Shown here: positions 1-17,321 of the stretch, piece by piece | How positions within the stretch are numbered: position 1 is the first letter of the stretch | How the letters are laid out: every line of letters starts with the position of its first letter | Origin: a virus | Virus record (IMG/VR): IMGVR_UViG_3300044451_000406 | Coordinates: 1 to 21,003 of that record | Direction: 5' to 3' (one strand) | Length of the DNA stretch: 21,003 bases | Program-made: the position numbers and the translations under genes | The notes under the pieces: generated by a model | The model's input: the letters and a program-made list of their open reading frames with translations, nothing else | Told to the model about the DNA's origin: nothing | The model's database searches: none

Positions 1-3000
1 GGAAGTATGTCATCAATTGCTATCTTGGCGAGGTCATCGGCATAGTCGTCAAGTCCGAGTCCACCCTCGTAACTCGTGTAGGGATCGTAAGAGTCGTATC
101 TTGAGCCCCTGCCGCGCGAAGAAAAGGCATCGGCATCCTGATTCTCCAGGAAATCCGTCAATCTGCTTGTTGGCAACTCATCCTCATCCGGAACGAACGG
201 AGTCTCGTAATCGTTGGTTGCTTCGAGTTCCCTATACCGTTCATCGTGGGATCTGACCAATCCGTCCATTAGTTCTTCTAAATCTTGTCGTATCCCTATG
301 AAATCATCTATGTTCTTGGCTGAATCAATTCGCTCCTGCATTCCATTCAGCAACTCTCGTTCTTCGTCGAATACGAACATGTCGTGTTCAAGTTCATAGG
401 TCTCATAGTTGCTTTCGCCCTCGCTCACGCCACCGACGAAGTCCTCGACTCCATCAAAAATGAAAGTCCAATCCTCCCTCATTGCTTCAATGTATTCCTC
501 GTCCGATTCATAATCGCGTCGAGTTGCATACGAACCACGACTGACTCGTTTGGCCACATTTGCCGCCTCTGCCTCAGCGAGCGCCGCGGCCTTCATCGCT
601 GCTTCTGCGACATTTTTATCTTTCCTGAAACGACCGAGTGCTTCATCCGCTTCGTCTATCGCAAAATCGTACTGCTCAATAATTCCGAAATCATCCTCAT
701 CGGCGAAGAGATCATCTGGATATCGAAATTTCTTGGGATCGAGTCCGGCCGCCCGAATCATCTCGAGGGCCGCTTGATTGCGGGCATCTATCAGGTTCTT
801 GCGGTATTCCTGCAGCTCGTCGGGATTCATTCGGCCGACGTACGATTCGGGCTCTTTGAGAGAGTTGAATTCTCTTTCCATGTCTCGGGTGCTACGGCGA
901 CTACCGCGAGAGGCGAGGCCAAATTCTCTGTTCCTTTCATCCGATCCGAGGCCGTACACGCGCTTGTCGTAGTCGGTCATCCCCCTGCCATCGCCGCGCA
1001 GGCTCGGGCCTTCGTCCTTCATTATGTTGTGTCCTTGGCGACCCGCATACGAACGAGCACGGATGTACCCGCGCTTCCTGTTTGCGGCACTCGGCCTGCC
1101 CGGCGATGCCGAGGAGGTCAGGAGTATCTCGTTGGCATGGAGCAACTCGCCAGTATCGGCATCCCGCACCGTTATGGTGTCGTAACCCCTGTTCTTTCCC
1201 TTGCGCGGACCCTTGGTGTACTTGCCCATCGGTGAGCCGGCGGCATCGCGCAAGGCATCCACGGAGATTTTTTTGCCCTCTGCCTCGATGATTTCGTCGA
1301 GCGTTCCCTGCTCCATCTCAATGACGACGTTGCGGTTGCGAACTCGCTTACCGCCGCGAGGCGGCTTGGTGGTGGCCACCTTCGGCATCGCCACCGGTGC
1401 CGGATCCGCCATTCGCGACTCGCGGACAGCTCGTTCTGCCTCCGAGGGCGTCGCAGCAGGTAGTTCCCCCTTGCGAACGTCGTGGGTTCGCTTGATATCG
1501 TTGATTGCTCGACCCTTGCTCGGAGCAGAGCGAACGGCATTCGCCTCCTCGCGCGTCACGCCAGAGTAGATGTAACCCCTCCCGCCCGAATAGACGACGA
1601 AGAGCTCCTCTTTGCTCGGGTCGTAGTGAACCTTCTCGACGGCCTTCGAACCACGGACATCAAACTCCTCAATTCCGCCATCGTCGGCGTTGTCCCACTC
1701 GCTGTCCTTGCGGTACGGATGCGTCCGCTTGATGTCGTTAATGGCTCGACCCTTGCTCGGGGACCGCTTGAAATCGTAGAATGTGTCCTTGTCAACGCCT
1801 TCGTAAATGTAGGTTCCGCCGCCCTTGTAGGTGGCCCTCAGTTCTTGCGTGGACGGGTTGTAATCGACGGCATCAAGCGCCGATGAGCCGGTGACATCGA
1901 CGGATTCGACACCCGGGGCATCGCCCGACATGTCAAGTTCGCGTCGTGCTTCGTCAAGTTCGCGCTCAACCCTTCGCTCGTCATCGTCATTGATGTCCCT
2001 GTCCTTGAGACGACGCATCACCGATTTGTAGACGTCCTCGGGCGAATCCAACAGTTCACGATCCCTCTCCATCCATTCGCCGGGGGTCTCTCTGTCGCCC
2101 ATATCCCACACTTGCGTCGAGACAAAGTACGCATTCCTCTTCGGGTCAAATTCGACCCTGAATGCCGATTCATTTTCCCTGAGCCCGACCATCAGCGCCA
2201 ACGGCTCTTCTTCCATTTCTGCCAGCGCACGACGTCCGGGCAAGGGCGAGGGAGCACCGTCCGTGAATTTGGCCATGACATCCTTGAGTTTCTTCTCAAC
2301 GAACCTGGCCTCGGTGCGGCTTACTTCGGCGGCATCGGTGTCTGCCAGGCCGATGATTTCATCGGGCGTGGCCGTGCGAACGCCCTTGCGACGCTTGATG
2401 TCGTTTATCGCCCTGCCGACGCTCTCGGCATTCTCGACGCCAATAGCCTCGTCCATGCTGACGCCCTCGTAGACGTACATTTGACTGCGACCGCCATCGC
2501 GCTTGTAGGCGACGTACAGACTCTCGCTGTCAGGGTCGTAGGACACATAATCGACTGCCCCGCTCGGCTTGACACCGAGTCTTCTCGTCCGCCTGCCGAC
2601 CGATTCAAACCCGCCCTCGGGTTTCCCGAACTGCGCGCGTCTCCGCATGTGGGCATCGGACATGCTCGCGTATGCCTCTTCGGCGTAGTTGAGCAAGTCC
2701 AGGTCTGGGCGAGAATTCAGTCGTGACCCGTTCATCACATCGGCGAGGCTATGACCGAGTTCGTTCTGGTTGATGAATTCGTCAAGCAGGGAGTTGGCAA
2801 AATCAATCTGCTCGTCCGCCGTCAGGCTGTACCAGTCGGTGTTCCTGCCGAGTACTCGCAACTGCGTCTCTTCAATCCAGTCTCGGTCTTGGAAATTCGG
2901 CTCCATTCCGAGTTTCTTGCGTTCTCCGCCGCGCGAGGCGAGACCATCCGGCCTTGCCACGTCCTGAATGCGCTCATCCCTGCCGAAGAAGTTGAACTGA

Positions 3001-6000
3001 TCATCGTCGGTTGCCTTGCGAGCCTTCTTCAGTTTCTTCAGCGCATTGATGTGCTTGCCCTTGCTCCTGGCGGCCGCAAGTTCCCCGACTTCCTCCATGC
3101 TGACGTCCGAATAGACGTACCAGCCGATGTCGCGGGAGTCCTCGTAGAATTCTCTTGCTCTGTCGTCCAGCTGGGTGTCGCTGAGCGGTGCCTCAAATCC
3201 ACCCTTACCGCGCCTTGCGGATCGATATCTCTCAATTGCGCTCTCGCGCTCGTTGTCACTCAGGTCATCCCATGGCTTGCCCTTCAGGAATCCGACCATG
3301 AGTTCACGGCTGTTGTCGTCGTAGAGAACTCCGCCGAGGGCCGATGAGTACGGCGTGCGGACCCGATGCAGTGATGAGAATCCTTCGCTCGCAGAGATCG
3401 GTACGTCGACCTCGTCCGGCGCATCCACGTCGGGTGCCTTCTTGCCGGTGTCAATGCCGCCGAACAACCTGCGCAGATTCGGCGATTTCTCGAGCATGAA
3501 GTTGACGGCCGCCTGAGATTCCTTGAATGCCCTGTTCAGTGCGTCTGGGTCATCTTTGAGGAGTTGAATCCAGCCCTTGATGTACGGGGCGTGATCCTGA
3601 CGGAAAGGCGCCTCAATGCCGTGCGCCGCCAACACCATCGCAGAACCTATCTCGGCCACGAGCTCCTCATAGGCCCTGATTTTCCTGTCCCTCGAATAAT
3701 CCTTCACGCTTGCCCTGTCAAGGCGCGATTTGTGACCCGTCCAGTGCACTGCTTCGTGTGCGAGCGTGGAAGTCCACTCAAGAGCACTCGTCCCCTTGGC
3801 GAATTCCGGCATCGATATGTAGTCGCCGTCAGGGTTGTAGTGGGGCGTCATGTTCTCCGTCTTGACGGTGGCGCCGAGCTCCTTTATCGTCTCATCAAGA
3901 ATGGTGATTCTCTCGGATTCCGGCAAATCGGCGGCGATTGCCCTCAGCTTTTCGTCGCCACCGTCCGTCTGGTCAATGTTGAAGACCGTCGCTCCGCGGA
4001 ATACGACGTACTCCTCGATTTCTCCGTCCGCATTCTTCCTCTTCACGAGTTGTGGACGAATTATCGGCGTCCCCTTCTCGCCCTTGCGAACTTGCGCACC
4101 ACGAGCCTTGAGCTGGTTGAAGCCGGCGAACCTCCCAGTCTTGTAATTTTTATCGTCCCTCGCCAACATCAACAACCAGGCATTAATCCCTTTGTATGGC
4201 TTGCCAGTCGTCGGGTTTATCGGCAACGAATCGTTGCGCCACGAAGGCCTCCATGTTGCGGGGTCGGCAGTCTCGAGTTCTGCCAAGAGCCTTTCCCTGA
4301 CCCCGCCCACGAGTTCATCGAGCTTGGACTGTTTTACTTGCTCGTCGTTGCCGCGGCTTGCGAATCCGAACGGCTCGTCCCAACCGCTTTCGTCGTCTTC
4401 TGGGACATCAAAACCCCACATCTTGTCGTACTTGTCAAGAAGCGCACCGAAACGTTCTTTGGCCTCGGCATCCTCCGGCCTGGAGCCGAATTCCCCCCTG
4501 CCACGAGAGAGAAGACCGCGCTCTTCGCGCAATTTCTCCACCCGGCTTCTTGTCTCATCAAAGTCGCCAGCCATGTAATCGGCAATCAATTTGTCAATTA
4601 ACTTCTGGCGCTCTTCGCCCCTCGGCATCTTCTCGAGTCTGGCCCAGTCGTCCGGGTCGACCATTGCTCGGTCAATAGTCTGACCATCGCTGGATTGCCA
4701 ACCGAGTTCGTTGTACTCCCTGACGCGACGGTTTATCTCTCGGTTTCTCTCTCGTCTTTCTCGTAGTCTTTCTCGCATTGAGCCACGAGATCCAAAGCCG
4801 CTGTAACGAGAAATCGTGCCGACGCTGACGATTCGGTCCATGTTGTCAAGGATCGATTGGTCGTCATCCAGATCCGGGAACTGATCGAGAGCGTCATCCC
4901 TTTGTGCTTGCGTCAGTTGCGACCAGCGGACGTACTTTTCTTCATCTTTCGGGTCAAAATCAATCAGCGAAAGGTTGCCTCGGCGGAATTGGTCTGCTTG
5001 CTTCTTTACGGCAGCCCGTTGAGCAGCGCGCTCTTTCCTGATTTTGGCATTGCGACTGTCGCGAGCCTTGAGCAAGGCGTCTACATAATCGCCGACCTTG
5101 GGGTCATCATCAAAATCGGGCGACAGCAAGGCCCTCTTTTCCTCGTCACTCAACTGCTCCCAACTGTCAATGGCGTTCCGGGCCTTTTCCTTGGATGAAT
5201 TGGACGGCTCGCGTCCGCCTCGCCAACCATCGCGGCGAGCAACCTCCAGCATTATCTCGGTGTTGCTGAACGGCCTCTCTCCGGCAGATGCAAATCCATC
5301 TCCTACATCACCGTACTTCTCGATGTAGCCCTCTAGTGCCCGGTCAAGCGCCGCATCTGCCTGATCGTCAAGGGCGCGTTCTTTTTGTCGTTCGGCATCG
5401 CGATCCTTGATGCGCCTTGCCTTGACCTTGTCGTACATCTCCTCGGCATGCTCCATGACCTCATCGGCGTAATCGCCGCCTTCCATGAGATCGACGATTC
5501 CATCGTCTCCTCGGTCAGAGAACCTGTCGTACATGTAGTCGTATTCGACCTCCTCGAACATTTCCTGTTTCTCATCGTCCGAGAGGTCGTTCCAGTCTCG
5601 ATACTCGTCGGTGTTCTGGTTCAGGCGGTCAAACACCTCGCCGACGGATCTCAGACCTTCTGACTCCGTTCTTTTCGGCCTGGCAGGAGCACTTTCCGTT
5701 ACGTCCTCGGGCACCAAATCACGGTTCGGTGCTTCTCGCTTTGCGGGCGGGGTGAAGTCCTGTCCGAATGTCTCTGCATACGAGGCGCGTCGCTGGAACT
5801 CGTGCGAAACCTTCAGAAGCTCCTCGTCGACCCTCTGCTTCTCGGCGCCGGTCGCCTGCCTGCGAGCATTGACGAGCCTGTTTCCCTCTTTGGTGAGGTC
5901 GGCCTCGGACATGTCCCAGTACTTGGCGAGACCCGGGTTGTCGGGGCGCCTGTTGGCGAGAAATGCGACATCATCTCGCGTCTCTGGCTCTATGACCGAC

Positions 6001-7493
6001 GCAAGCAGTGCTTCTTGGCGCTGTGCCTTCGTCCAAGAATTCTTGTCCTTCGGGAGCTTCGGAGCGCTGCGAGGCTTGTCAAGCAGGGCATCGCCGTTGC
6101 GTTTGTTGCCCCGAACATCGGGGAGATTGAAACCCGGCTTCTTGATGGGTATGTACGGGCGCATGAACGCACTGCCGTCCTGGACGAAGCCGTCACCGTC
6201 ACCGTCAAGGGCGTACGGGTTGAATGTTTGGGCAAGGTCACGAATCCTGCCGATTGCCTGTCCGATGTTTCCGCCAAACTGGCCGATTGTCGAGCCGAGT
6301 GCTTTTACGGCATTTTGCAGGGCGCCGAGTGCGCTTGCAGTCATCAACCCATCGATGATGATTCCCTTCGTGCTGGGTCTGGCGACAAGTTTGTGGTGCC
6401 TGACCACTGGGGCAATGAAATCCCTCGCATACGCCAAGTATGACTGGGGCAACTCAATGAGGTGCGACACATCCGATTTGCCCCACGACGGTCGACCGAC
6501 TTCTTCTCCGGCAAACAACATTGCCATTTCGACCTGATCATCGGTGCGGTATGCAATGCCACCATTTGGAACGACCACCGGCGTGTCCGGCTTTTGCTGC
6601 ACGTTCTGCATCGGCCCAAGTGCAGGATTGGTGGCTGCGTATGGTTCGGGCTTGCCGAACATGTAGGCAGTACCCTCTCTGTGGTACGGAAGCCTGTACA
6701 TCGATACTTTGCCATCGGCAGTAGTTCGCCTGAACACGGTGCTGTTTTCCGTGGCACTCATGATCTCAATCGTGGATTCGGTGCGCGCGGCGAGTTCTGC
6801 TTGGAGCGACATTTTTTCCGGCTGACTGAGTTCTCGCGCCATGCCCTCGTCGAATGGATTGCCTTCGCTCCCATTGTCATCCTCTTCCCGTGGGGCGGCA
6901 ATGACGACTATGCGTGGCATCTCGGACATCATCGGCATCCCCGTGCCCGACACGGGCACCATCGGTATGTGTGCCTTCCCCTCACCCTTGATGGAAATGG
7001 TCCCCGTCAATTGGTTGGCACCATGCAACACCGGCGACACTTCGTAGAGTTCGACTTCCTTGAGGATGTTTGCCTGCAGATTTTGGTCAAACACCGAATC
7101 AATTGTCTTGTAGCCGATTGACCACTCTTGCTCCTCGCCGAAAAAAGCGACATTGGCGAAGGCCTCCTTGCCCTTCTCTGAGTTCAGGTTGAACTGCACC
7201 TTCGCATACAGGCCGCCGATTCCGGCATTGCGCATCTTTGCAGGAAGGCGCGAATCGCCGACTGGGACTTCGTACATCTCCAAGACTTTGCCAATCGGGT
7301 CATTCCACGAATGACCCCAGACGACACGCGGCTTCCTCTTGGTGAGACTTTTGGCGAATGCCCCACTGATGACGACATCGCCAACCGAATCCTTGTTGCC
7401 TATGCCGGCAACGAAGCACTCGACTATCCCCTTGGCTTCGTCAATGTTGATTTGTCCGCTGTTGCCTGACTTGAAGAGAAGGTCGTCCATCAT
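1..7493 (-). CDS. Giant HK97 prohead protease fused to a polyvalent ArdC/zincin/KTSC protein (3' end outside window)
   Basis: One reading frame is open from the ATG at 7491-7493 to the left edge (last full codon at 3-5), at least 2,497 residues and still unfinished; a normal prohead protease is about 200-250. A second ATG follows directly, and an AAGGCAGG Shine-Dalgarno-like stretch precedes both, so 7490 is an equally good start. Visible in order: S78/U35 prohead protease (residues 1 to about 175; H61, S125); acidic linkers with an EF-hand-like loop at D430/D432/D434; W-x2-L-[ST] motifs at W634, W778, W857, W1408 and W1554; ArdC-like N-terminal domain (about 1055-1170); zincin peptidase (about 1175-1330; H1246, E1247, H1250); KTSC-like domains near 1378-1488, 1641-1703, 1867-1925 and 1946-2004; a charged, low-complexity tail. 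Six [FL]-x-S-R-G motifs are scattered through it. The fusion itself is read directly; the domain names come from motif recognition; virion packaging of the cargo is inference. Confidence 0.85.
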   Translation of the reverse strand, partial: MMDDLLFKSGNSGQINIDEAKGIVECFVAGIGNKDSVGDVVISGAFAKSLTKRKPRVVWGHSWNDPIGKVLEMYEVPVGDSRLPAKMRNAGIGGLYAKVQFNLNSEKGKEAFANVAFFGEEQEWSIGYKTIDSVFDQNLQANILKEVELYEVSPVLHGANQLTGTISIKGEGKAHIPMVPVSGTGMPMMSEMPRIVVIAAPREEDDNGSEGNPFDEGMARELSQPEKMSLQAELAARTESTIEIMSATENSTVFRRTTADGKVSMYRLPYHREGTAYMFGKPEPYAATNPALGPMQNVQQKPDTPVVVPNGGIAYRTDDQVEMAMLFAGEEVGRPSWGKSDVSHLIELPQSYLAYARDFIAPVVRHHKLVARPSTKGIIIDGLMTASALGALQNAVKALGSTIGQFGGNIGQAIGRIRDLAQTFNPYALDGDGDGFVQDGSAFMRPYIPIKKPGFNLPDVRGNKRNGDALLDKPRSAPKLPKDKNSWTKAQRQEALLASVIEPETRDDVAFLANRRPDNPGLAKYWDMSEADLTKEGNRLVNARRQATGAEKQRVDEELLKVSHEFQRRASYAETFGQDFTPPAKREAPNRDLVPEDVTESAPARPKRTESEGLRSVGEVFDRLNQNTDEYRDWNDLSDDEKQEMFEEVEYDYMYDRFSDRGDDGIVDLMEGGDYADEVMEHAEEMYDKVKARRIKDRDAERQKERALDDQADAALDRALEGYIEKYGDVGDGFASAGERPFSNTEIMLEVARRDGWRGGREPSNSSKEKARNAIDSWEQLSDEEKRALLSPDFDDDPKVGDYVDALLKARDSRNAKIRKERAAQRAAVKKQADQFRRGNLSLIDFDPKDEEKYVRWSQLTQAQRDDALDQFPDLDDDQSILDNMDRIVSVGTISRYSGFGSRGSMRERLRERRERNREINRRVREYNELGWQSSDGQTIDRAMVDPDDWARLEKMPRGEERQKLIDKLIADYMAGDFDETRSRVEKLREERGLLSRGRGEFGSRPEDAEAKERFGALLDKYDKMWGFDVPEDDESGWDEPFGFASRGNDEQVKQSKLDELVGGVRERLLAELETADPATWRPSWRNDSLPINPTTGKPYKGINAWLLMLARDDKNYKTGRFAGFNQLKARGAQVRKGEKGTPIIRPQLVKRKNADGEIEEYVVFRGATVFNIDQTDGGDEKLRAIAADLPESERITILDETIKELGATVKTENMTPHYNPDGDYISMPEFAKGTSALEWTSTLAHEAVHWTGHKSRLDRASVKDYSRDRKIRAYEELVAEIGSAMVLAAHGIEAPFRQDHAPYIKGWIQLLKDDPDALNRAFKESQAAVNFMLEKSPNLRRLFGGIDTGKKAPDVDAPDEVDVPISASEGFSSLHRVRTPYSSALGGVLYDDNSRELMVGFLKGKPWDDLSDNERESAIERYRSARRGKGGFEAPLSDTQLDDRAREFYEDSRDIGWYVYSDVSMEEVGELAAARSKGKHINALKKLKKARKATDDDQFNFFGRDERIQDVARPDGLASRGGERKKLGMEPNFQDRDWIEETQLRVLGRNTDWYSLTADEQIDFANSLLDEFINQNELGHSLADVMNGSRLNSRPDLDLLNYAEEAYASMSDAHMRRRAQFGKPEGGFESVGRRTRRLGVKPSGAVDYVSYDPDSESLYVAYKRDGGRSQMYVYEGVSMDEAIGVENAESVGRAINDIKRRKGVRTATPDEIIGLADTDAAEVSRTEARFVEKKLKDVMAKFTDGAPSPLPGRRALAEMEEEPLALMVGLRENESAFRVEFDPKRNAYFVSTQVWDMGDRETPGEWMERDRELLDSPEDVYKSVMRRLKDRDINDDDERRVERELDEARRELDMSGDAPGVESVDVTGSSALDAVDYNPSTQELRATYKGGGTYIYEGVDKDTFYDFKRSPSKGRAINDIKRTHPYRKDSEWDNADDGGIEEFDVRGSKAVEKVHYDPSKEELFVVYSGGRGYIYSGVTREEANAVRSAPSKGRAINDIKRTHDVRKGELPAATPSEAERAVRESRMADPAPVAMPKVATTKPPRGGKRVRNRNVVIEMEQGTLDEIIEAEGKKISVDALRDAAGSPMGKYTKGPRKGKNRGYDTITVRDADTGELLHANEILLTSSASPGRPSAANRKRGYIRARSYAGRQGHNIMKDEGPSLRGDGRGMTDYDKRVYGLGSDERNREFGLASRGSRRSTRDMEREFNSLKEPESYVGRMNPDELQEYRKNLIDARNQAALEMIRAAGLDPKKFRYPDDLFADEDDFGIIEQYDFAIDEADEALGRFRKDKNVAEAAMKAAALAEAEAANVAKRVSRGSYATRRDYESDEEYIEAMREDWTFIFDGVEDFVGGVSEGESNYETYELEHDMFVFDEERELLNGMQERIDSAKNIDDFIGIRQDLEELMDGLVRSHDERYRELEATNDYETPFVPDEDELPTSRLTDFLENQDADAFSSRGRGSRYDSYDPYTSYEGGLGLDDYADDLAKIAIDDIL
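1471..1764 (-). repeat. Tandem KTSC-encoding repeat, period 237 bp
   Basis: The segments near 1471-1527 and 1708-1764 are strongly similar at the DNA level and both encode the SKGRAINDIKRTH helix of adjacent KTSC domains. They are offset by 237 bp, or 79 codons. A third, more diverged copy of the same core lies near 2392, offset 222 codons from the first. The retained nucleotide similarity suggests fairly recent duplication or continuing conversion between the last two copies. Confidence 0.65.
1480..3360 (-). other. Four KTSC-like domains inside the giant protein, one interrupted by an insert
   Basis: Three complete KTSC-type units are seen at residues about 1641-1703, 1867-1925 and 1946-2004. 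Each has a V-x-Y-[DN]-P-[SD] strand, a second strand ending in Y, a Y-[IV]-Y-[ES]-G-V turn, and a closing S-x-GRAINDIKR helix. A fourth, degenerate unit at about 1378-1488 has the first half (GGVLYDDNSRELMVGF) and last half (GWYVYSDVSMEEV, then GKHINALKKLKK) separated by about 45 residues that include one of the protein's W-x2-L-S motifs. KTSC domains are small domains of uncertain function found in phage and polyvalent proteins. The insert inside the fourth copy is unusual. Confidence 0.7.
3500..4330 (-). other. ArdC-like N-terminal domain plus zincin-like metallopeptidase inside the giant protein
   Basis: Residues about 1055-1170 read like the N-terminal domain of ArdC-type anti-restriction proteins: a TWRPSWRND stretch, PTTGKPYKGINAWLL, then FAGFNQLKARGAQVRKGEKG and a VFRGATVFNIDQT strand. 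Residues about 1175-1330 are a zincin-like peptidase with LAHEAVHWTGH (H1246, E1247, H1250) and a downstream AYEELVAEIGSAMV helix that would supply the third zinc ligand near residue 1276. In plasmids and phages this pair is associated with protecting incoming DNA from host restriction. All expected zinc-site residues are present, so an active peptidase is plausible. The substrate cannot be told from sequence. Confidence 0.8.
6950..7493 (-). other. Prohead protease domain (HK97 gp4-like, S78/U35) at the N-terminus of the giant protein
   Basis: The first 175 or so residues carry the family hallmarks: an opening strand GIVECFVAGIGNKDSVGDVV, a xxGAFxxSL helix, then VVWGHSWNDPIG with the catalytic His at residue 61. 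The catalytic Ser is in EWSIGYK at residue 125, followed by the LYEVSPVLHGANQ strand that usually closes the fold. In HK97-like phages this enzyme trims scaffold or capsid delta domains inside the procapsid and then digests itself. Its place just after the portal gene is canonical. A stand-alone enzyme would stop soon after this point; here the frame simply continues. Confidence 0.88.
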
Positions 7494-7560
7494 CCTGCCT
7501 TGTCGGTGTTGCGCCAAGCAATGATAAACCAACGTTTGTATGGCCCAACGCAACTACTAC

Positions 7561-7600
7561 AATCAATTTAGCAATTGAATGTCTAATTGCTAAATTGATT
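7561..7600. repeat. Perfect 16-bp inverted repeat with 8-nt loop across the portal stop codon
   Basis: The arms 7561-7576 (AATCAATTTAGCAATT) and 7585-7600 are exact reverse complements separated by 8 nt. On the minus strand the first arm encodes the last codons of the portal gene and the stop codon falls at the arm/loop junction (7583-7585). The stem is AT-rich and no T-tract follows on either strand, so it is not a standard intrinsic terminator. It sits between the portal gene and the giant protease gene and could form an mRNA hairpin that tunes expression or stability, or be a protein-binding site. Confidence 0.85.
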
Positions 7601-9589
7601 CCATAGCGATGATGCGACGTGTTGGGACAAGACGAAGCGATCTTTGGCATCGAGTTGGGCATACCCCTCAATGAGCGACTCCCTGAACACGGCAGAGCGG
7701 GCATTCTCGCCAGTCGTTGCGACGGCAGACTTGATTGCCGTGCCTATGTCCCTTCCGATTTGTTCGTTCAAATCCTGTAGTTGGACGAGGCTGGCATCGG
7801 CCGCCCTTGCCATGTCTTGCTTTGTCGGTTTCGGGAGATCATTTGACGTTGCCGCATCCTGAATTATGGCAAAAAGGACGGGACGAACATCGTCCTCAAG
7901 TTGCTTGACCCACACATCCTTGTTGAATATTGACGAGACCTCGAGTGTCCCAGAAAACAGAGCTTTGCGAGATTTTGCCCCGAACGACTTCTCCATGACC
8001 ACTCGTTGCTGGCGCTCAATGACGCGCTCAAGTGAACGACCGAGTATTTCTGCCCATCGCTCGATTGCTCGTTCGGTGTCGGCGGCCTTCGATTCCACCG
8101 GGCTTTGGCCGGCGGGGGCGGCTTCCGTGGTTGCGAGTGGGACGTCTGGGGCGCCAGCCGGATTGGCCGCCTGCATGGCCGCCGCAATCGCGCCGGCCAT
8201 CGTGTCGGGTTCTGGGCCGGCAGGTGCTTGCGGCGCAGGTGCTTCGCCTCCGGGCATGCCCGGCATTCCTGGCGGTGGGGCACCAGTCTCCATCCCCGGA
8301 ACGGCACCCTGAGGCGGCCCGCCCGGCATCATCATTGGCGGCGATTCCATCTTTTTCTTCGTGTTGCCAATGGGCGTGAGGTTCGGGTTCATTAGCAACG
8401 AGTCGGCGAGATCGGACTCAATCACCTTGCGTCCGCTTCCCGTCCTGTACTCGTTGAGACTTATGAGACCGCGAGAGAACTCATCACTCAAATAGCGCTC
8501 TCGTTCTTGTTTGTAGAGCATGAGGACGGGGACCTCGCTCGTGTCAAAGTCGACGTAGTTGATTTCATCCAGCTCGTCGAGTGCGCGCGCAATTGGCTCC
8601 AGGTGCGGGAGCATTGTCTCCGTCCAGAACACTCGTATTTCTTCCGCGGCATTGGAGAAAGTACGACCAGAAGCATTGCCGATGACGGATTCTGGGACGC
8701 CGAAAGATGCCAGAATTTCTTCTTTGGTTATCTGTCTCATCTGTATGTAGGCGGCATCTCTCGGGGATGCGCCGACATCGACGTACTCGGCGCCATCGTC
8801 CGAGGCGAGGACGGTTGTCTGTCCCGCGCGCGACAGGTTGCCCCTGAAGCGACTCTTGAGTTCTTCTTTGTCCTCGTCGTCAAGCATTCCGCGCACGACA
8901 AGCAGGCCGCCTGGCCTGCCGTCGTTCATCAGGAAATTTCTGTTGTAGAGCTTGGCAAAATTCTCTATCTCAATTGCTATGCCAGCGGCTTCCATCGGCG
9001 TCAGCGAAAGATACGGGTCAAGTGGGTGTGGCCTGCGAATCCACACGACATCTTCCGGCTTGAGGATCGTTGTCTGCCCGTGCGGAAGCGACACCTCAAA
9101 GCCGGAAACAAATTTCTTCGGATCCGGTATCGGGGCAGTCGCCTGCGGCGGGAGAAGATTCAACCCGATAATGCTCCCGTCTCGCCCCCTCACCTTCTCC
9201 ATGAACGCACCCCTCGTGCCGAGAAGCAACTGAGCGGAGAGTCTGTACCTGAAAATAAATGCGTTCTCGCCAATGTTCGATTTGGTGTTCAAGACCTCCA
9301 CGAGCGGGGACTTTGCCATCTTCTTGGACGACACAATTTCGCCCGTGGGCGAATTGTCCTTGCGCAGGATTATCGGGAGACGAGCCTGATTTCCGGCAAT
9401 GACATCGATACACCTCGAAACCCAGGTGACTCTCTGCATGCCCTCTCGATATGCACGCTCAATGTCCCATGAATCCTTGTACGACCGTCCGGCCATTCCC
9501 ATTGTCTGGGCAATGGGGGCGCCCGGACCTATCGCGGCCTTGGCCGATTGGGCGGATGCCGCTTTGTTCTTTGATGAGTTCCAGGCCAT
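7583..9589 (-). CDS. Portal protein, HK97 family, with C-terminal extension
   Basis: The 668-residue product matches the HK97-type portal family: WVSRCIDVIAGNQARLPI near the start, VVWIRRPHPLDPYLSLTPMEAA, a YNRNFLMNDGRPGGLL segment, and ITKEEILASFGVPESVIG followed by the long helix and ALDELDEINY. Portals form the dodecameric ring at one capsid vertex through which DNA is packaged. It is longer than usual (often 400-500): a Pro/Gly/Met-rich linker at about residues 413-500 leads into a helical C-terminal region of roughly 165 residues. The ATG at 9587-9589 lies 3 bases past the stop of a small upstream gene and has only a weak Shine-Dalgarno sequence, which suggests translational coupling. 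The giant protease gene follows on the same strand after an 89-base gap. Confidence 0.92.
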   Translation of the reverse strand: MAWNSSKNKAASAQSAKAAIGPGAPIAQTMGMAGRSYKDSWDIERAYREGMQRVTWVSRCIDVIAGNQARLPIILRKDNSPTGEIVSSKKMAKSPLVEVLNTKSNIGENAFIFRYRLSAQLLLGTRGAFMEKVRGRDGSIIGLNLLPPQATAPIPDPKKFVSGFEVSLPHGQTTILKPEDVVWIRRPHPLDPYLSLTPMEAAGIAIEIENFAKLYNRNFLMNDGRPGGLLVVRGMLDDEDKEELKSRFRGNLSRAGQTTVLASDDGAEYVDVGASPRDAAYIQMRQITKEEILASFGVPESVIGNASGRTFSNAAEEIRVFWTETMLPHLEPIARALDELDEINYVDFDTSEVPVLMLYKQERERYLSDEFSRGLISLNEYRTGSGRKVIESDLADSLLMNPNLTPIGNTKKKMESPPMMMPGGPPQGAVPGMETGAPPPGMPGMPGGEAPAPQAPAGPEPDTMAGAIAAAMQAANPAGAPDVPLATTEAAPAGQSPVESKAADTERAIERWAEILGRSLERVIERQQRVVMEKSFGAKSRKALFSGTLEVSSIFNKDVWVKQLEDDVRPVLFAIIQDAATSNDLPKPTKQDMARAADASLVQLQDLNEQIGRDIGTAIKSAVATTGENARSAVFRESLIEGYAQLDAKDRFVLSQHVASSLWNQFSN

Positions 9590-14575: not shown

Positions 14576-14928
14576 CGACGGTGGGAATTGTTGCGAGGAC
14601 TTCGCCAATCAGTCAGGTGGAAATTGAGGGGCGAATACTGATGCTGCTTGACGAACTCGAGCACCACACCGAGGCATTCGAGAGTCTCGCAGAAGACTGT
14701 GCCAAGAAGGAATCCAGACTCAAGGGAGAGTGGGCAAAGGAGTACCTGTCGGCAAAGGGTTCAATCCGTGAACGAGAAGCATGGGCAGACTACAAGCTCG
14801 CCGACATGGATTTTGATTACAAGTGTGCCGAGGCACTCGTGAAGGCAAAGAGAGAGAAACTCCTGACCCTCAGGACAGAGGTGGATGCCCTCCGGACGCT
14901 CAATGCGAACGTCAGGGCTCAGGTGTGA
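14572..14928 (+). CDS. Unidentified helical protein
   Basis: The start is placed at GTG 14572, which overlaps the RuvC-like stop as GTGA and has AAAGGA about 9 bases upstream; a TTG at 14533 in the same frame is less likely. The product has 118 residues. After a short N-terminus it is a charged helical protein (LEHHTEAFESLAEDCAKKES, then AWADYKLADMDFDYKCAEAL) likely to form a coiled coil. No catalytic motif is visible and no family is recognised. Its position between the resolvase and the ParB-like gene, with coupling at both ends, puts it in the same operon. Confidence 0.8.
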   Translation: MTTVGIVARTSPISQVEIEGRILMLLDELEHHTEAFESLAEDCAKKESRLKGEWAKEYLSAKGSIREREAWADYKLADMDFDYKCAEALVKAKREKLLTLRTEVDALRTLNANVRAQV

Positions 14929-15659
14929 ACGGAATCCACGAATCCTTGGCATCGCTGGCAATGCCCATTGGAAGTCTCGTGCCCCTCAAGGACAATCCGA
15001 GGCGCGGCGACGTGGATGCAATCGCCGCCTCGTACAGAGAATTCGGCCAAGTCAAACCAATCGTTGTCACAGAAAATGGCGATGGGAGGTACCTAATTAT
15101 TGCGGGGAATCACCAGTACGAGGCGGCGAAGCGTCTCGGGTGGGATTCCATCGCCTGTACGGTGCTCGATGCAGACAAAAAGAAAGCGACTGCCTTTGCG
15201 TACGCCGACAACCGGACGGCGGACCTCGGCGGGTACGACGAAGATTTGCTCGTACAAATGATCGGCGAGGTTGGTAGCGAGTACTCCGAACTCATGAACA
15301 ATCTCGGAATAGATGAGTTCGACATGGCCACCATCGAGAACTCGGTCTCAAATGCCGAAAGCGAAATACTCACATCAAACGAATTCCTCCCCCCGGTGCT
15401 CGTTGAGACGCAGGATCAGTCGACTCCGCTGGTCGTGCCCAAAGGCGACGAAATGAACGTGGCGGCGCTCGGAAGCACGGCGATACCGGGCACGAAGAAA
15501 CCTCAGGCGGTCGTGCAGTACACGATTGTTTTTGACAGAGTGGAACAGCAGAGCAGGTGGTACGACTTCATAAAGTGGCTTCGCTCAAACCCGGAAATTG
15601 GGGGCAACACGACTGCAGAAAAATTGATGTGCTACCTGGAAAAGAACATTGACTTCTAA
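14925..15659 (+). CDS. ParB/sulfiredoxin-like domain protein (first of two)
   Basis: The start is GTG 14925, overlapping the previous stop as GTGA; a longer form from 14823 would lie over the upstream gene and is rejected. The 244-residue product opens with a ParB/Srx-type domain: LVPLKDNPRRGDVDAIAASY, GQVKPIVVT, LIIAGNHQYEAAKRLGW (residues 57-71), then VLDADKKKATAFAYADNRTA. This fold can bind or hydrolyse nucleotides and is often found next to DNA-modifying enzymes. The C-terminal part has FDRVEQQSRWYDFIKWLRSN, a helix-rich tail with no methyltransferase. The TAATG junction couples it tightly to the PAPS-reductase-like gene. Confidence 0.85.
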   Translation: MNGIHESLASLAMPIGSLVPLKDNPRRGDVDAIAASYREFGQVKPIVVTENGDGRYLIIAGNHQYEAAKRLGWDSIACTVLDADKKKATAFAYADNRTADLGGYDEDLLVQMIGEVGSEYSELMNNLGIDEFDMATIENSVSNAESEILTSNEFLPPVLVETQDQSTPLVVPKGDEMNVAALGSTAIPGTKKPQAVVQYTIVFDRVEQQSRWYDFIKWLRSNPEIGGNTTAEKLMCYLEKNIDF

Positions 15660-16783
15660 TGCCGCGCCAACGGTTGTTCCTTGATGTCTCCTGCGTTGAT
15701 GCCGCCAGGGCACGGATTCGCCATGTGTACGACACATTTGACACCGTGTGCGTCCAGTTCTCTGGCGGAAAAGACTCGACGGCGATTCTGCACCTGGCGA
15801 AGGAAGTCCACGAGGAGCGTGGGCTTGGACCAGTAAAGGTGATTTTCCGCGACGAGGAAATGGTCAGCCCGATGGTGGTGGACTATGTAATGAAAGTTCG
15901 CAACTACCCGTGGGTTGACATGGAGTGGTACTGCTTGCCGTACGGGGCAGAAATATGGATTCTCGGGCGCCGCGAGACGGCCCTGCTGTGGAGTGGGAAA
16001 AGACAACGAGAAGGTCGTCTCGTCAGGCCGATGCCGAACTTCGCAATCAACGCAATGCACTTCGGACTGGATCACGACAGGCCACTGAGAGAAACAATCG
16101 ATTACTACACGATGCAGGGGAAGAGGGGTCGTACGGCATTCATTACGGGGGTGAGGGCGAACGAGTCAATGATTCGCTACCGATCCTGCGTGCAAAAAAT
16201 CCACGAGAATTACATCGTCACCCCGTTCGGCGTCAAGCGTGGTCTCCCACTCAAGTTCGCAAAAGTCATTTACGACTGGCAGACGAACGATGTGTTCAAG
16301 TTCATCACCGACTCCGGGGGGGAATACTCGGAGTATTACGATGCCGCCGAAATGACTGGCTCAAACACGAGGGTCGGCATTCCGCTCCACTCAATAGCGA
16401 TACGCAGACTTGGCGATGTGGTGGCAACCGAGCCAGAGTTCTACGATCAATTGGTGCGAGTATTCCCGAGAATTGATGCCCAAAGGAGGCTCGGCAAGGA
16501 CTTTGATTCAGATGCAATCGTCGAGACATACTCCCATGATGGACTCAATGGGGTCAGCCAATTCATATCGGACTTCATGATTGGGACAACAATGCAATCC
16601 GCCGCTCGCCGATACGTGTCCACGTTCAAAAAGAAAATGGCTCTGGATCCGGTTTCGTACCCGATACATTGGCTGGTGCGAACGCTTCTGCTCAACTCGA
16701 TACATGTCACCTCTGCAAACCCAGCGGGTCCAGGCACCAAGACGGGGAGAATCATCAAGGATGCAGGAGTAACCAATGAATGA
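15659..16783 (+). CDS. PAPS reductase-like PP-loop protein (IbrA-like)
   Basis: The 374-residue product has a PP-loop ATP-binding motif, FSGGKDST, at residues 34-41, followed by VKVIFRDEEM, a PWVDMEWYCLPYG stretch, FITGVRANES near 164-170, and KVIYDWQTNDV. This matches the PAPS reductase/adenine nucleotide alpha-hydrolase superfamily, which activates substrates with ATP. The Cys-rich C-terminal motif of true PAPS reductase is absent and only C12, C31, C92 and C177 were noted in the first half, so sulfate reduction and a classical DndC iron-sulfur arrangement are both doubtful. With ParB-like proteins on both sides it most resembles IbrA of IbrA-IbrB pairs. The substrate is unknown. Confidence 0.87.
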   Translation: MPRQRLFLDVSCVDAARARIRHVYDTFDTVCVQFSGGKDSTAILHLAKEVHEERGLGPVKVIFRDEEMVSPMVVDYVMKVRNYPWVDMEWYCLPYGAEIWILGRRETALLWSGKRQREGRLVRPMPNFAINAMHFGLDHDRPLRETIDYYTMQGKRGRTAFITGVRANESMIRYRSCVQKIHENYIVTPFGVKRGLPLKFAKVIYDWQTNDVFKFITDSGGEYSEYYDAAEMTGSNTRVGIPLHSIAIRRLGDVVATEPEFYDQLVRVFPRIDAQRRLGKDFDSDAIVETYSHDGLNGVSQFISDFMIGTTMQSAARRYVSTFKKKMALDPVSYPIHWLVRTLLLNSIHVTSANPAGPGTKTGRIIKDAGVTNE

Positions 16784-17321
16784 CACAACGCACGCAAAAC
16801 CGAGCAGTCTGTCATTCGCACCGTGGCGAACGACCTACATGCTCTCGCCAGACTTGGCGGTGCTGGCGCGCTCAATGAACAGGCACGGAATACTGTCGCC
16901 GATAATTGTGAGAGAAGCAGGACTGACGATTATTGATGGTCACGAACGATGCCTGTTGGCAATGAACAACCAGGCAGTACGCGAGGCAATTGGGGAGACC
17001 GTTCCCATCATTGTTGTCCAGTGCACCGAGGCGGAGGCAATGATTCTCCATGTCCAACTCAACAGGGGCAGGGGTTCTGTCGTATCCAAGAAACTTTCCT
17101 CCCTTGTCAGAAGGCTCCTACTTTCGGGTGCGACAACAGAAGATTTCCTTTGCGAAGCCCTCAACCTGACGATGGACGAGTTTGAGCTCCTGCTTGATGG
17201 GACGATTGTCAAGCATCGTGCAATCAGGGAACATCTCTATTCGCGAGCATGGGTGCCCGTTGAGTCGGCCACGAAGGTCAATGAGCCTGCCATAGAAATG
17301 CCACCGAACGACGACAGATAG
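16776..17321 (+). CDS. ParB-like protein, IbrB-type (second of two)
   Basis: The 181-residue product starts at ATG 16776, overlapping the previous gene by 8 bases with GCAGGAG upstream. It carries a short ParB-like domain: LSPDLAVLARSMNRHGILSP, IIVREAGLTIIDGHERCLLA (D54, G55, H56, E57, R58), IIVVQCTEAEAMILHVQLNRGRG. The C-terminal half is helical and may bind DNA or a partner (SSLVRRLLLSGATTEDFL). It is shorter and quite different from the first ParB-like protein, so the two are not a recent duplication. A position next to an IbrA-like gene suggests they act together. Confidence 0.83.
   Translation: MNDTTHAKPSSLSFAPWRTTYMLSPDLAVLARSMNRHGILSPIIVREAGLTIIDGHERCLLAMNNQAVREAIGETVPIIVVQCTEAEAMILHVQLNRGRGSVVSKKLSSLVRRLLLSGATTEDFLCEALNLTMDEFELLLDGTIVKHRAIREHLYSRAWVPVESATKVNEPAIEMPPNDDR

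What the first reader, a model, noticed from the sequence alone, without database searches (positions are those of the whole stretch)
1..7493. Prohead protease continuous with a >2,300-residue polyvalent anti-host protein
The N-terminal 175 residues are an ordinary S78/U35 prohead protease, yet the frame continues without a stop for at least 2,497 codons through ArdC-like, zincin and KTSC domains. Prohead proteases act inside the procapsid, so the enzyme could serve as the targeting domain that carries the cargo into the virion, and may later cut it free. The fusion is seen directly. Polyvalent proteins are an established phage theme, but I do not know whether a fusion to the maturation protease of this size has been described.
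Basis: partly seen in the sequence, partly recalled or inferred. Interest (0 to 1): 0.85.

Follow-up and report, generated by a model that had tools for sequence, protein, structure and literature searches.

The report
Phage head-protease polyprotein with cut-site code
A phage encodes one giant protein (2,500 residues in this fragment, up to 5,502 in relatives) that starts with its head-maturation protease and continues as a chain of cargo domains separated by a short repeated peptide; the peptide differs between phage lineages and is shared by other head proteins of the same phage, which suggests a polyprotein cut up inside the virus head.

Summary
Confirmed: on the minus strand (7490..3) one uninterrupted frame joins an S78 prohead protease to an ArdC/zincin module and four KTSC domains, open at the window edge. 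It is no assembly join: an independent contig overlaps 15.8 kb with 3 mismatches, and relatives keep the frame; complete ones are 3,772-5,502 aa. The main new observation is a repeated linker peptide, (D/R)G[FL][AGS]S, often GFASRG: 7-27 copies per protein against 0.3-0.7 expected, at module boundaries and in predicted disordered linkers. Other lineages repeat a different peptide of the same shape: GLAS, GFSS, GMRSxR, GLRS, LGSR, RLSSG. The variant follows the protease tree, switches in concert at orthologous junctions, and recurs in other large proteins of the same phage. Those proteins share a ~45-residue Ca-loop-like tag with the protease leader; tagged proteins hold 58 motifs against 2.1 expected. 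S78 occurs in all 15 contigs checked, the zincin in only 6 of 14. Best explanation: a head-cargo polyprotein, addressed by leader or tag and cut by its own N-terminal protease before the motif serine. Cleavage and encapsidation are inferred. Polyvalent proteins and protease-capsid fusions are known; I found no described precedent for this N-terminal arrangement with a lineage-specific repeated site.

The parts
3..7490 (-). Giant polyprotein frame (P0001 residues 22-2517), truncated at the window edge
   Evidence: independent contig overlap
6999..7427 (-). S78/U35 prohead (head maturation) serine protease domain, P0001 43-185; H81, S145, E168 and E171 invariant in relatives
6651..6830 (-). Second leader domain (P0001 ~242-301), best-predicted part of the leader (pLDDT ~90); a leader profile also hits a KTSC repeat at 1642-1718
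6132..6224 (-). Ca-loop-like tag FNPYALDGDGDGFVQDGSAFMRPYIPIKKPG (P0001 444-474), shared with other large motif-bearing proteins of related phages
5280..5297 (-). Motif copy GFASAG (P0001 753), candidate cut site
4782..4799 (-). Motif copy GFGSRG (P0001 919), in predicted disordered linker
4500..4517 (-). Motif variant GLLSRG (P0001 1013), in predicted disordered linker
4350..4367 (-). Motif copy GFASRG (P0001 1063), upstream border of the ArdC cassette
3981..4298 (-). ArdC N-terminal domain (P0001 1086-1191)
3528..3896 (-). MPTase-PolyVal zincin (P0001 1220-1342), HEAVH motif present
3366..3383 (-). Motif copy GFSS (P0001 1391), downstream border of the ArdC cassette
1449..3383 (-). Region holding the four KTSC-type repeats (P0001 ~1391-2035; best hit 1890-1940); the limits are my reading, Pfam gave only the best stretch
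2928..2945 (-). Motif copy GLASRG (P0001 1537)
903..920 (-). Motif copy GLASRG (P0001 2212), start of a module found elsewhere in relatives (e.g. G005 4715-4980)
111..128 (-). Motif variant AFSSRG (P0001 2476)
7583..9589 (-). Portal protein, immediately upstream of the polyprotein

Best explanation
The gene encodes a head-cargo polyprotein. The N-terminal leader (S78 protease, a KTSC-like domain and a Ca-loop tag) brings the chain into the assembling procapsid. The S78 protease then cuts the chain, and probably other tagged head proteins, at repeated linker sites of the form G/P-[FLM]-[AGRS]-S, by inference just before the Ser. This frees separate cassettes (ArdC/zincin antirestriction, KTSC domains, others unknown) that are ejected with the DNA. 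Shown: frame continuity, motif enrichment, position at module borders and in predicted disorder, lineage-specific concerted change, sharing with tagged proteins, an S78 in every contig checked. Inferred: cleavage, the scissile bond, the identity of the protease, encapsidation, ejection.
For: (1) G[FL]xSRG occurs 3-14 times per polyprotein against 0.006-0.022 expected from composition shuffles; the core G[FL][AGS]S occurs 7-27 times against 0.28-0.68. (2) Homology breakpoints between polyproteins lie within 10 aa of a motif in 174 cases against 40 +/- 9 for circular shifts (0 of 2000 as high), and 180 with the motif masked. The ArdC cassette sits at ~1080 or ~3280, is preceded by a motif copy in each motif-bearing lineage (GFASRG, GALGSRA, GFGSRF, TRLSSG), and is followed by one where sequence continues in the window, L013, L140 and L176 lineages. 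(3) All five motif sites in the modelled region lie in pLDDT<50 segments, which make up 30% of it, on both sides of the folded ArdC-zincin. (4) Codons at motif copies differ synonymously. (5) Other lineages repeat another peptide: GLAS x9, GFSS, GMRS x9, GLRS x5, LGSR x17 (0.13 expected), LSSG x14 (0.12 expected). Labels follow the S78 tree: 10 changes against 17.2 shuffled. Orthologous junctions switch, e.g. ASEYGFASRG to ASEYGALGSRS. (6) Other proteins of the same phage carry that phage's variant: GMRS-type phages 9, 19 and 10 copies against 2, 2 and 3 of the other type; GFAS/GLAS-type 4-21 against 0-2. Non-S78 proteins with the Ca-loop tag hold 58 motifs against 2.1 expected, 18 of 19 having at least one. 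(7) S78 is in 15 of 15 contigs, always at the N-terminus of the giant frame; the MPTase is in 6 of 14.
Against: No cleavage product or virion proteome exists for these phages. The major capsid protein, the classical S78 substrate, lacks the repeated peptide; only an xS[IVL]G site aligns with HK97's K103/S104 (the HK97 scissile bond is from my own knowledge). Phage phylogeny as a whole could account for the motif following the S78 tree. Tape-measure proteins of the window clade carry the motif but those of other lineages do not carry their lineage's variant. Giant S78 frames without any detected repeat exist: L029 3,207 aa, L164 and L178 3,869 aa, so the repeat is not required for a giant S78 fusion. 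Untagged proteins also show some excess, 53 against 15.2. Some motif definitions were chosen after looking at each genome.
Confidence: 0.6

Rival explanations
1. The repeated peptide is a docking motif, not a cut site: each copy binds one lineage-specific partner (scaffold, capsid interior or DNA-bound protein) that holds the long chain in the head, and the chain stays intact.
For: Explains lineage-specific concerted change and sharing between tagged proteins equally well; N4 virion RNA polymerase is packaged as a large unprocessed polyvalent protein (PMC5512222).
Against: Copies sit at cassette borders in predicted disorder, and the chain carries a protease whose predicted catalytic residues are conserved.
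Confidence: 0.18
2. The motif is a cut site, but for another protease: the zincin in the polyprotein, a host protease, or a protease acting after ejection.
For: Iyer et al. propose autoproteolysis by MPTase domains (PMC5512222); the MCP lacks the motif; window-clade tape-measure proteins, which are not head cargo, carry it.
Against: The MPTase is absent from 8 of 14 motif-bearing contigs, including a 132-kb one, while S78 is present in all. A host enzyme does not readily explain a different motif per phage lineage following the S78 tree, unless the hosts differ too.
Confidence: 0.15
3. The repeat is a by-product of cassette duplication, a recombination seam or flexible linker with no recognition function.
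For: Motif codons are nearly always TCN and CGN, as expected if copies descend from one another.
Against: Third positions have diverged while residues are kept; orthologous seams switch to another lineage's peptide in concert; other tagged proteins of the same phage share the same variant.
Confidence: 0.05

Closest known systems
Polyvalent proteins of phages and conjugative elements (Iyer et al. 2017, PMC5512222)
   Same: Large multidomain chain with ArdC-N and MPTase domains in a portal/terminase phage; the authors already draw the analogy to RNA-virus polyproteins and mention embedded peptidases
   Different: They report assemblin-like (head-protease) peptidases always at the C-terminus; here S78 is N-terminal, followed by a tag and a shuffled cassette array with a repeated lineage-specific junction peptide; the passages read name no such motif
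HK97-type S78 prohead protease (HK97 gp4) and S78-major capsid protein fusions (PAJU2, Nocturne116; PMC8306868)
   Same: Same protease family, gene next to portal; natural fusion of the protease to another head component
   Different: Fusion partner is thousands of residues of cargo; the capsid protein is a separate gene in the contigs where both are seen
Head proteins with propeptides cut by prohead proteases: SPN3US gp245 (motif AxE, P1' Ser preferred, PMC10052503), P1 DarA cut by Pro (PMC12810830)
   Same: Short protease motif shared by several internal head proteins; N-terminal targeting parts; antirestriction cargo; Ser preferred after the SPN3US cut
   Different: There 13 of 14 mapped SPN3US cuts remove N-terminal propeptides from separately encoded proteins; here up to 27 sites would release cassettes from one chain
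ArdC antirestriction protein of plasmid R388 (PDB 6i89)
   Same: ArdC-N plus zincin core, TM 0.80 by target
   Different: One cassette within a giant polyprotein, bounded by the motif

Membership tests
S78 prohead protease | S78 profile match above curated cut-off | tested here: met
   (47.9 bits in the six-frame search, cut-off 21)
S78 prohead protease | Conserved catalytic His, Ser and acidic residue | tested here: met
   H81, S145, E168, E171 invariant over 10 and 24 relatives; assignment as catalytic is from my own knowledge of the family
S78 prohead protease | Gene between portal and major capsid protein | tested here: met
   portal directly upstream in the window; MCP further downstream in relatives
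S78 prohead protease | Cleaves the major capsid protein | not testable with these tools
   xS[IVL]G site at the HK97-aligned position only suggests it
Polyvalent protein | Several effector-type domains including ArdC-N/MPTase in one chain in a portal-terminase phage | tested here: met
Polyvalent protein | Head-protease-like peptidase, when present, at the C-terminus (as reported in PMC5512222) | tested here: not met
   S78 is N-terminal in the window and in all contigs checked; a reported regularity rather than a defining feature
Processed viral polyprotein | Embedded protease | tested here: met
Processed viral polyprotein | Consensus cut-site sequence repeated at domain junctions | tested here: met
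   (as a sequence motif only)
Processed viral polyprotein | Actual cleavage into mature products | not testable with these tools
   needs mass spectrometry or enzymology
S78-MCP capsid polyprotein (PAJU2 type) | MCP in the same frame as the protease | tested here: not met
   MCP is a separate gene in the contigs where both were found; not seen directly in the truncated window
ArdC antirestriction protein | ArdC-N plus MPTase with HExxH and ArdC fold | tested here: met
   activity not testable

The most novel reading that the evidence does not exclude
A group of tailed phages packs its injected cargo with a two-part protein code: a Ca-loop tag that addresses proteins to the head and a lineage-specific four-residue cut site read by the S78 head protease. 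The code is used both within giant protease-led polyproteins and across several separately encoded head proteins, and protease and sites co-evolve. It would be a tailed-phage counterpart of the self-cutting polyproteins of RNA viruses and retroviruses.
Probability: 0.5. Interest if true: 0.9.

Novelty: new variant of a known kind. Interest (0 to 1): 0.82.

Why it matters
What tailed phages inject with their DNA, and how it is loaded and released, is known for only a few models. If this reading is right, cargo boundaries can be read from sequence, so the injected repertoire of the more than 580 matching IMG/VR stretches could be listed cassette by cassette. It also makes predictions that mass spectrometry or one purified protease can test, including lineage-matched cutting. 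A leader, tag and cut site that load proteins into capsids could be useful in capsid engineering.

Tried and rejected
Assembly artefact: rejected. DNA-level repeat as sole cause: synonymous divergence between copies. The zincin as the general reader of the motif: absent from 8 of 14 motif-bearing contigs. Tape measure as a general substrate: motif present in the window clade only, not concordant elsewhere. Conservation profile across motif columns against flanks: showed no spike, because the motif is often replaced by related forms; this led me from GFASRG to the wider core. Known actinophage relatives (GMA6, Cantare, Chidiebere, Gilgamesh): separate short proteases, no enriched repeat of this kind, no tag. 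Host: a portal scan of genome contigs found no relative, so the host is unknown. Solved-structure search for the leader gave nothing credible. Literature: the string GFASRG occurs in no held paper; no paper held four or more of six terms for protease-led cargo polyproteins; most subscription papers are not held, among them the HK97 protease encapsidation paper.

Full report
WHAT IS THERE. The window is a 21-kb fragment of an uncultivated tailed phage (IMG/VR record). On the minus strand, directly downstream of the portal gene (9589..7583), one frame runs 7553..3 without a stop and leaves the window open; the likely start is the ATG at 7490. It holds an S78 head maturation protease, ArdC-N, an MPTase zincin and four KTSC stretches. 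The ArdC model matches R388 ArdC at TM 0.80 by target; the leader model matches predicted viral prohead proteases. The putative catalytic His, Ser and acidic positions are invariant in 24 relatives.

IT IS NOT A JOIN. A second IMG/VR contig overlaps the window for 15,831 bp with 3 mismatches and carries the frame through residue 793. A portal search brought 80 relatives. In the closest ones the frame after the portal stays open beyond 3,300 codons; with more sequence it closes at 3,772, 3,918, 4,109, 4,315, 4,905 and 5,502 aa. A leader profile found more than 580 stretches that encode a relative in IMG/VR; among the fetched, closed leader frames, 22 of 77 are 1,500 aa or longer and the rest shorter.

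A REPEATED LINKER PEPTIDE. The chain contains a recurring peptide, in its fullest form DGFASRG. G[FL]xSRG occurs 3-14 times per polyprotein where 0.006-0.022 are expected; the core G[FL][AGS]S occurs 7-27 times where 0.28-0.68 are expected. Copies use different synonymous codons. They mark module borders: ends of homology between polyproteins fall within 10 residues of a copy 174 times against 40 +/- 9 for circularly shifted positions, and 180 times when the motif itself is masked. This shows that the motif lies in the seams between modules; it does not by itself show cutting. The ArdC module occurs near residue 1080 in one group and 3280 in another, each time right after a copy. In the structure model of window residues 880-1600, all five copies lie in segments with pLDDT under 50, on either side of the folded ArdC-zincin.

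THE PEPTIDE IS LINEAGE-SPECIFIC AND CHANGES IN CONCERT. Counts of short patterns in other S78-led giants found the same shape with other letters: GLAS, GFSS, GMRSxR, GLRS, LGSR (17 copies, 0.13 expected) and LSSG (14 copies, 0.12 expected). The common shape is [FLM]-[AGRS]-S, usually after G or P. The variants follow the S78 tree (10 changes against 17.2 when shuffled), though whole-phage ancestry would do the same. At orthologous junctions one variant replaces the other: ASEYG-FASRG in G006 is ASEYG-ALGSRS in L140, and GLASRGARKSTEDYEK corresponds to PLGSRGARKSTDDYKD. Such concerted change suggests a trans-acting reader.

OTHER PROTEINS OF THE SAME PHAGE USE THE SAME VARIANT. In 14 contigs, non-S78 proteins of GMRS-type phages carry 9, 19 and 10 GMRS/GLRS copies against 2, 2 and 3 of the other type; GFAS/GLAS-type phages show the reverse, 4-21 against 0-2. 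The L140 phage carries LGSR/PLGS forms in its second giant protein too. Many of these proteins share a segment with the polyprotein leader, FDPxAxDGDGDGxVQEGTPFxRPxIPG, which looks like a dockerin-type calcium loop. The 19 tagged non-S78 proteins hold 58 motif copies against 2.1 expected, 18 of them at least one; untagged proteins hold 53 against 15.2 in six times as much sequence.

WHO READS IT. Every one of 15 contigs holds an S78, always at the start of the giant frame. The zincin, which Iyer et al. propose as an autoprotease in polyvalent proteins (PMC5512222), is missing from 8 of 14 motif-bearing contigs. A serine after the cut is preferred by the SPN3US protease (PMC10052503) and begins the mature P1 capsid protein (PMC9024508). 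The aligned capsid proteins here have xS[IVL]G at the place of HK97's KSLG. This makes cutting before the motif serine plausible but unproven. The capsid protein itself lacks the repeated peptide.

HOW IT MOST LIKELY WORKS. Shown: the fusion, the repeat, its position, its lineage-specific variation and its sharing with tagged proteins. Inferred: the leader (through protease or tag) brings the chain into the procapsid; the protease, activated there, cuts the chain at the motifs; the freed cassettes leave with the DNA and act early in infection, ArdC against restriction. HK97 proheads hold about 60 protease copies (PMC12749128), so a leader fusion could carry a fixed dose of each cassette (inference).

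WHAT IT IS NOT. It is not an S78-capsid fusion of the PAJU2 type (PMC8306868): the MCP is a separate gene in the contigs where both were found. It differs from the polyvalent proteins of Iyer et al., where head-type peptidases sit at the C-terminus. In SPN3US, 13 of the 14 mapped cuts remove N-terminal propeptides from separately encoded proteins; here many sites lie along one chain.

LIMITS. All sequences bearing the motif are metagenomic, the host is unknown, no protein data exist, motif definitions were set after looking, tape-measure copies are inconsistent, and some giant S78 frames (L029, L164, L178) show no repeat.

Noticed in passing
L105:22697-36571 (Streptomyces phage Gilgamesh gp48): A 4,624-aa hypothetical protein lies between portal and protease of a cultured phage, with no clearly enriched repeat of this kind; a tractable relative for virion proteomics.
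   Followed up: partly
L029, L164, L178 (S78-led frames of 3,207 and 3,869 aa): Giant S78 fusions without any detected repeated peptide; either uncut or with a more degenerate site.
   Followed up: partly
L101:6981-11879 and L096:4046-8947: Tape-measure proteins of the window clade carry GLASR(G/A) near residue 60 and GFAS or GLASRG copies in a Gly-rich hinge near 645; other lineages lack their lineage motif there.
   Followed up: partly
L098:9693-19154 and L111:9472-15678: A second tagged giant protein (3,154 and 2,069 aa) with a DnaQ/RNase_T exonuclease domain and GNAT or WYL matches.
   Followed up: partly
window 6651-6830: The best-predicted leader domain after the protease gives a profile that also hits a KTSC repeat (1642-1718) of the same protein, so the leader may contain a divergent KTSC domain.
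   Followed up: no
window 14823-15659, 15659-16783, 16776-17321: Two ParB-like partition/nuclease genes flank a phosphoadenosine phosphosulfate reductase gene.
   Followed up: no
BFVD A0A6J5NDH2: Top viral structure match of the leader is an uncultured-phage protein with a model of 1,394 residues labelled DNA 3'-5' helicase; probably a mislabelled S78-led fusion.
   Followed up: no
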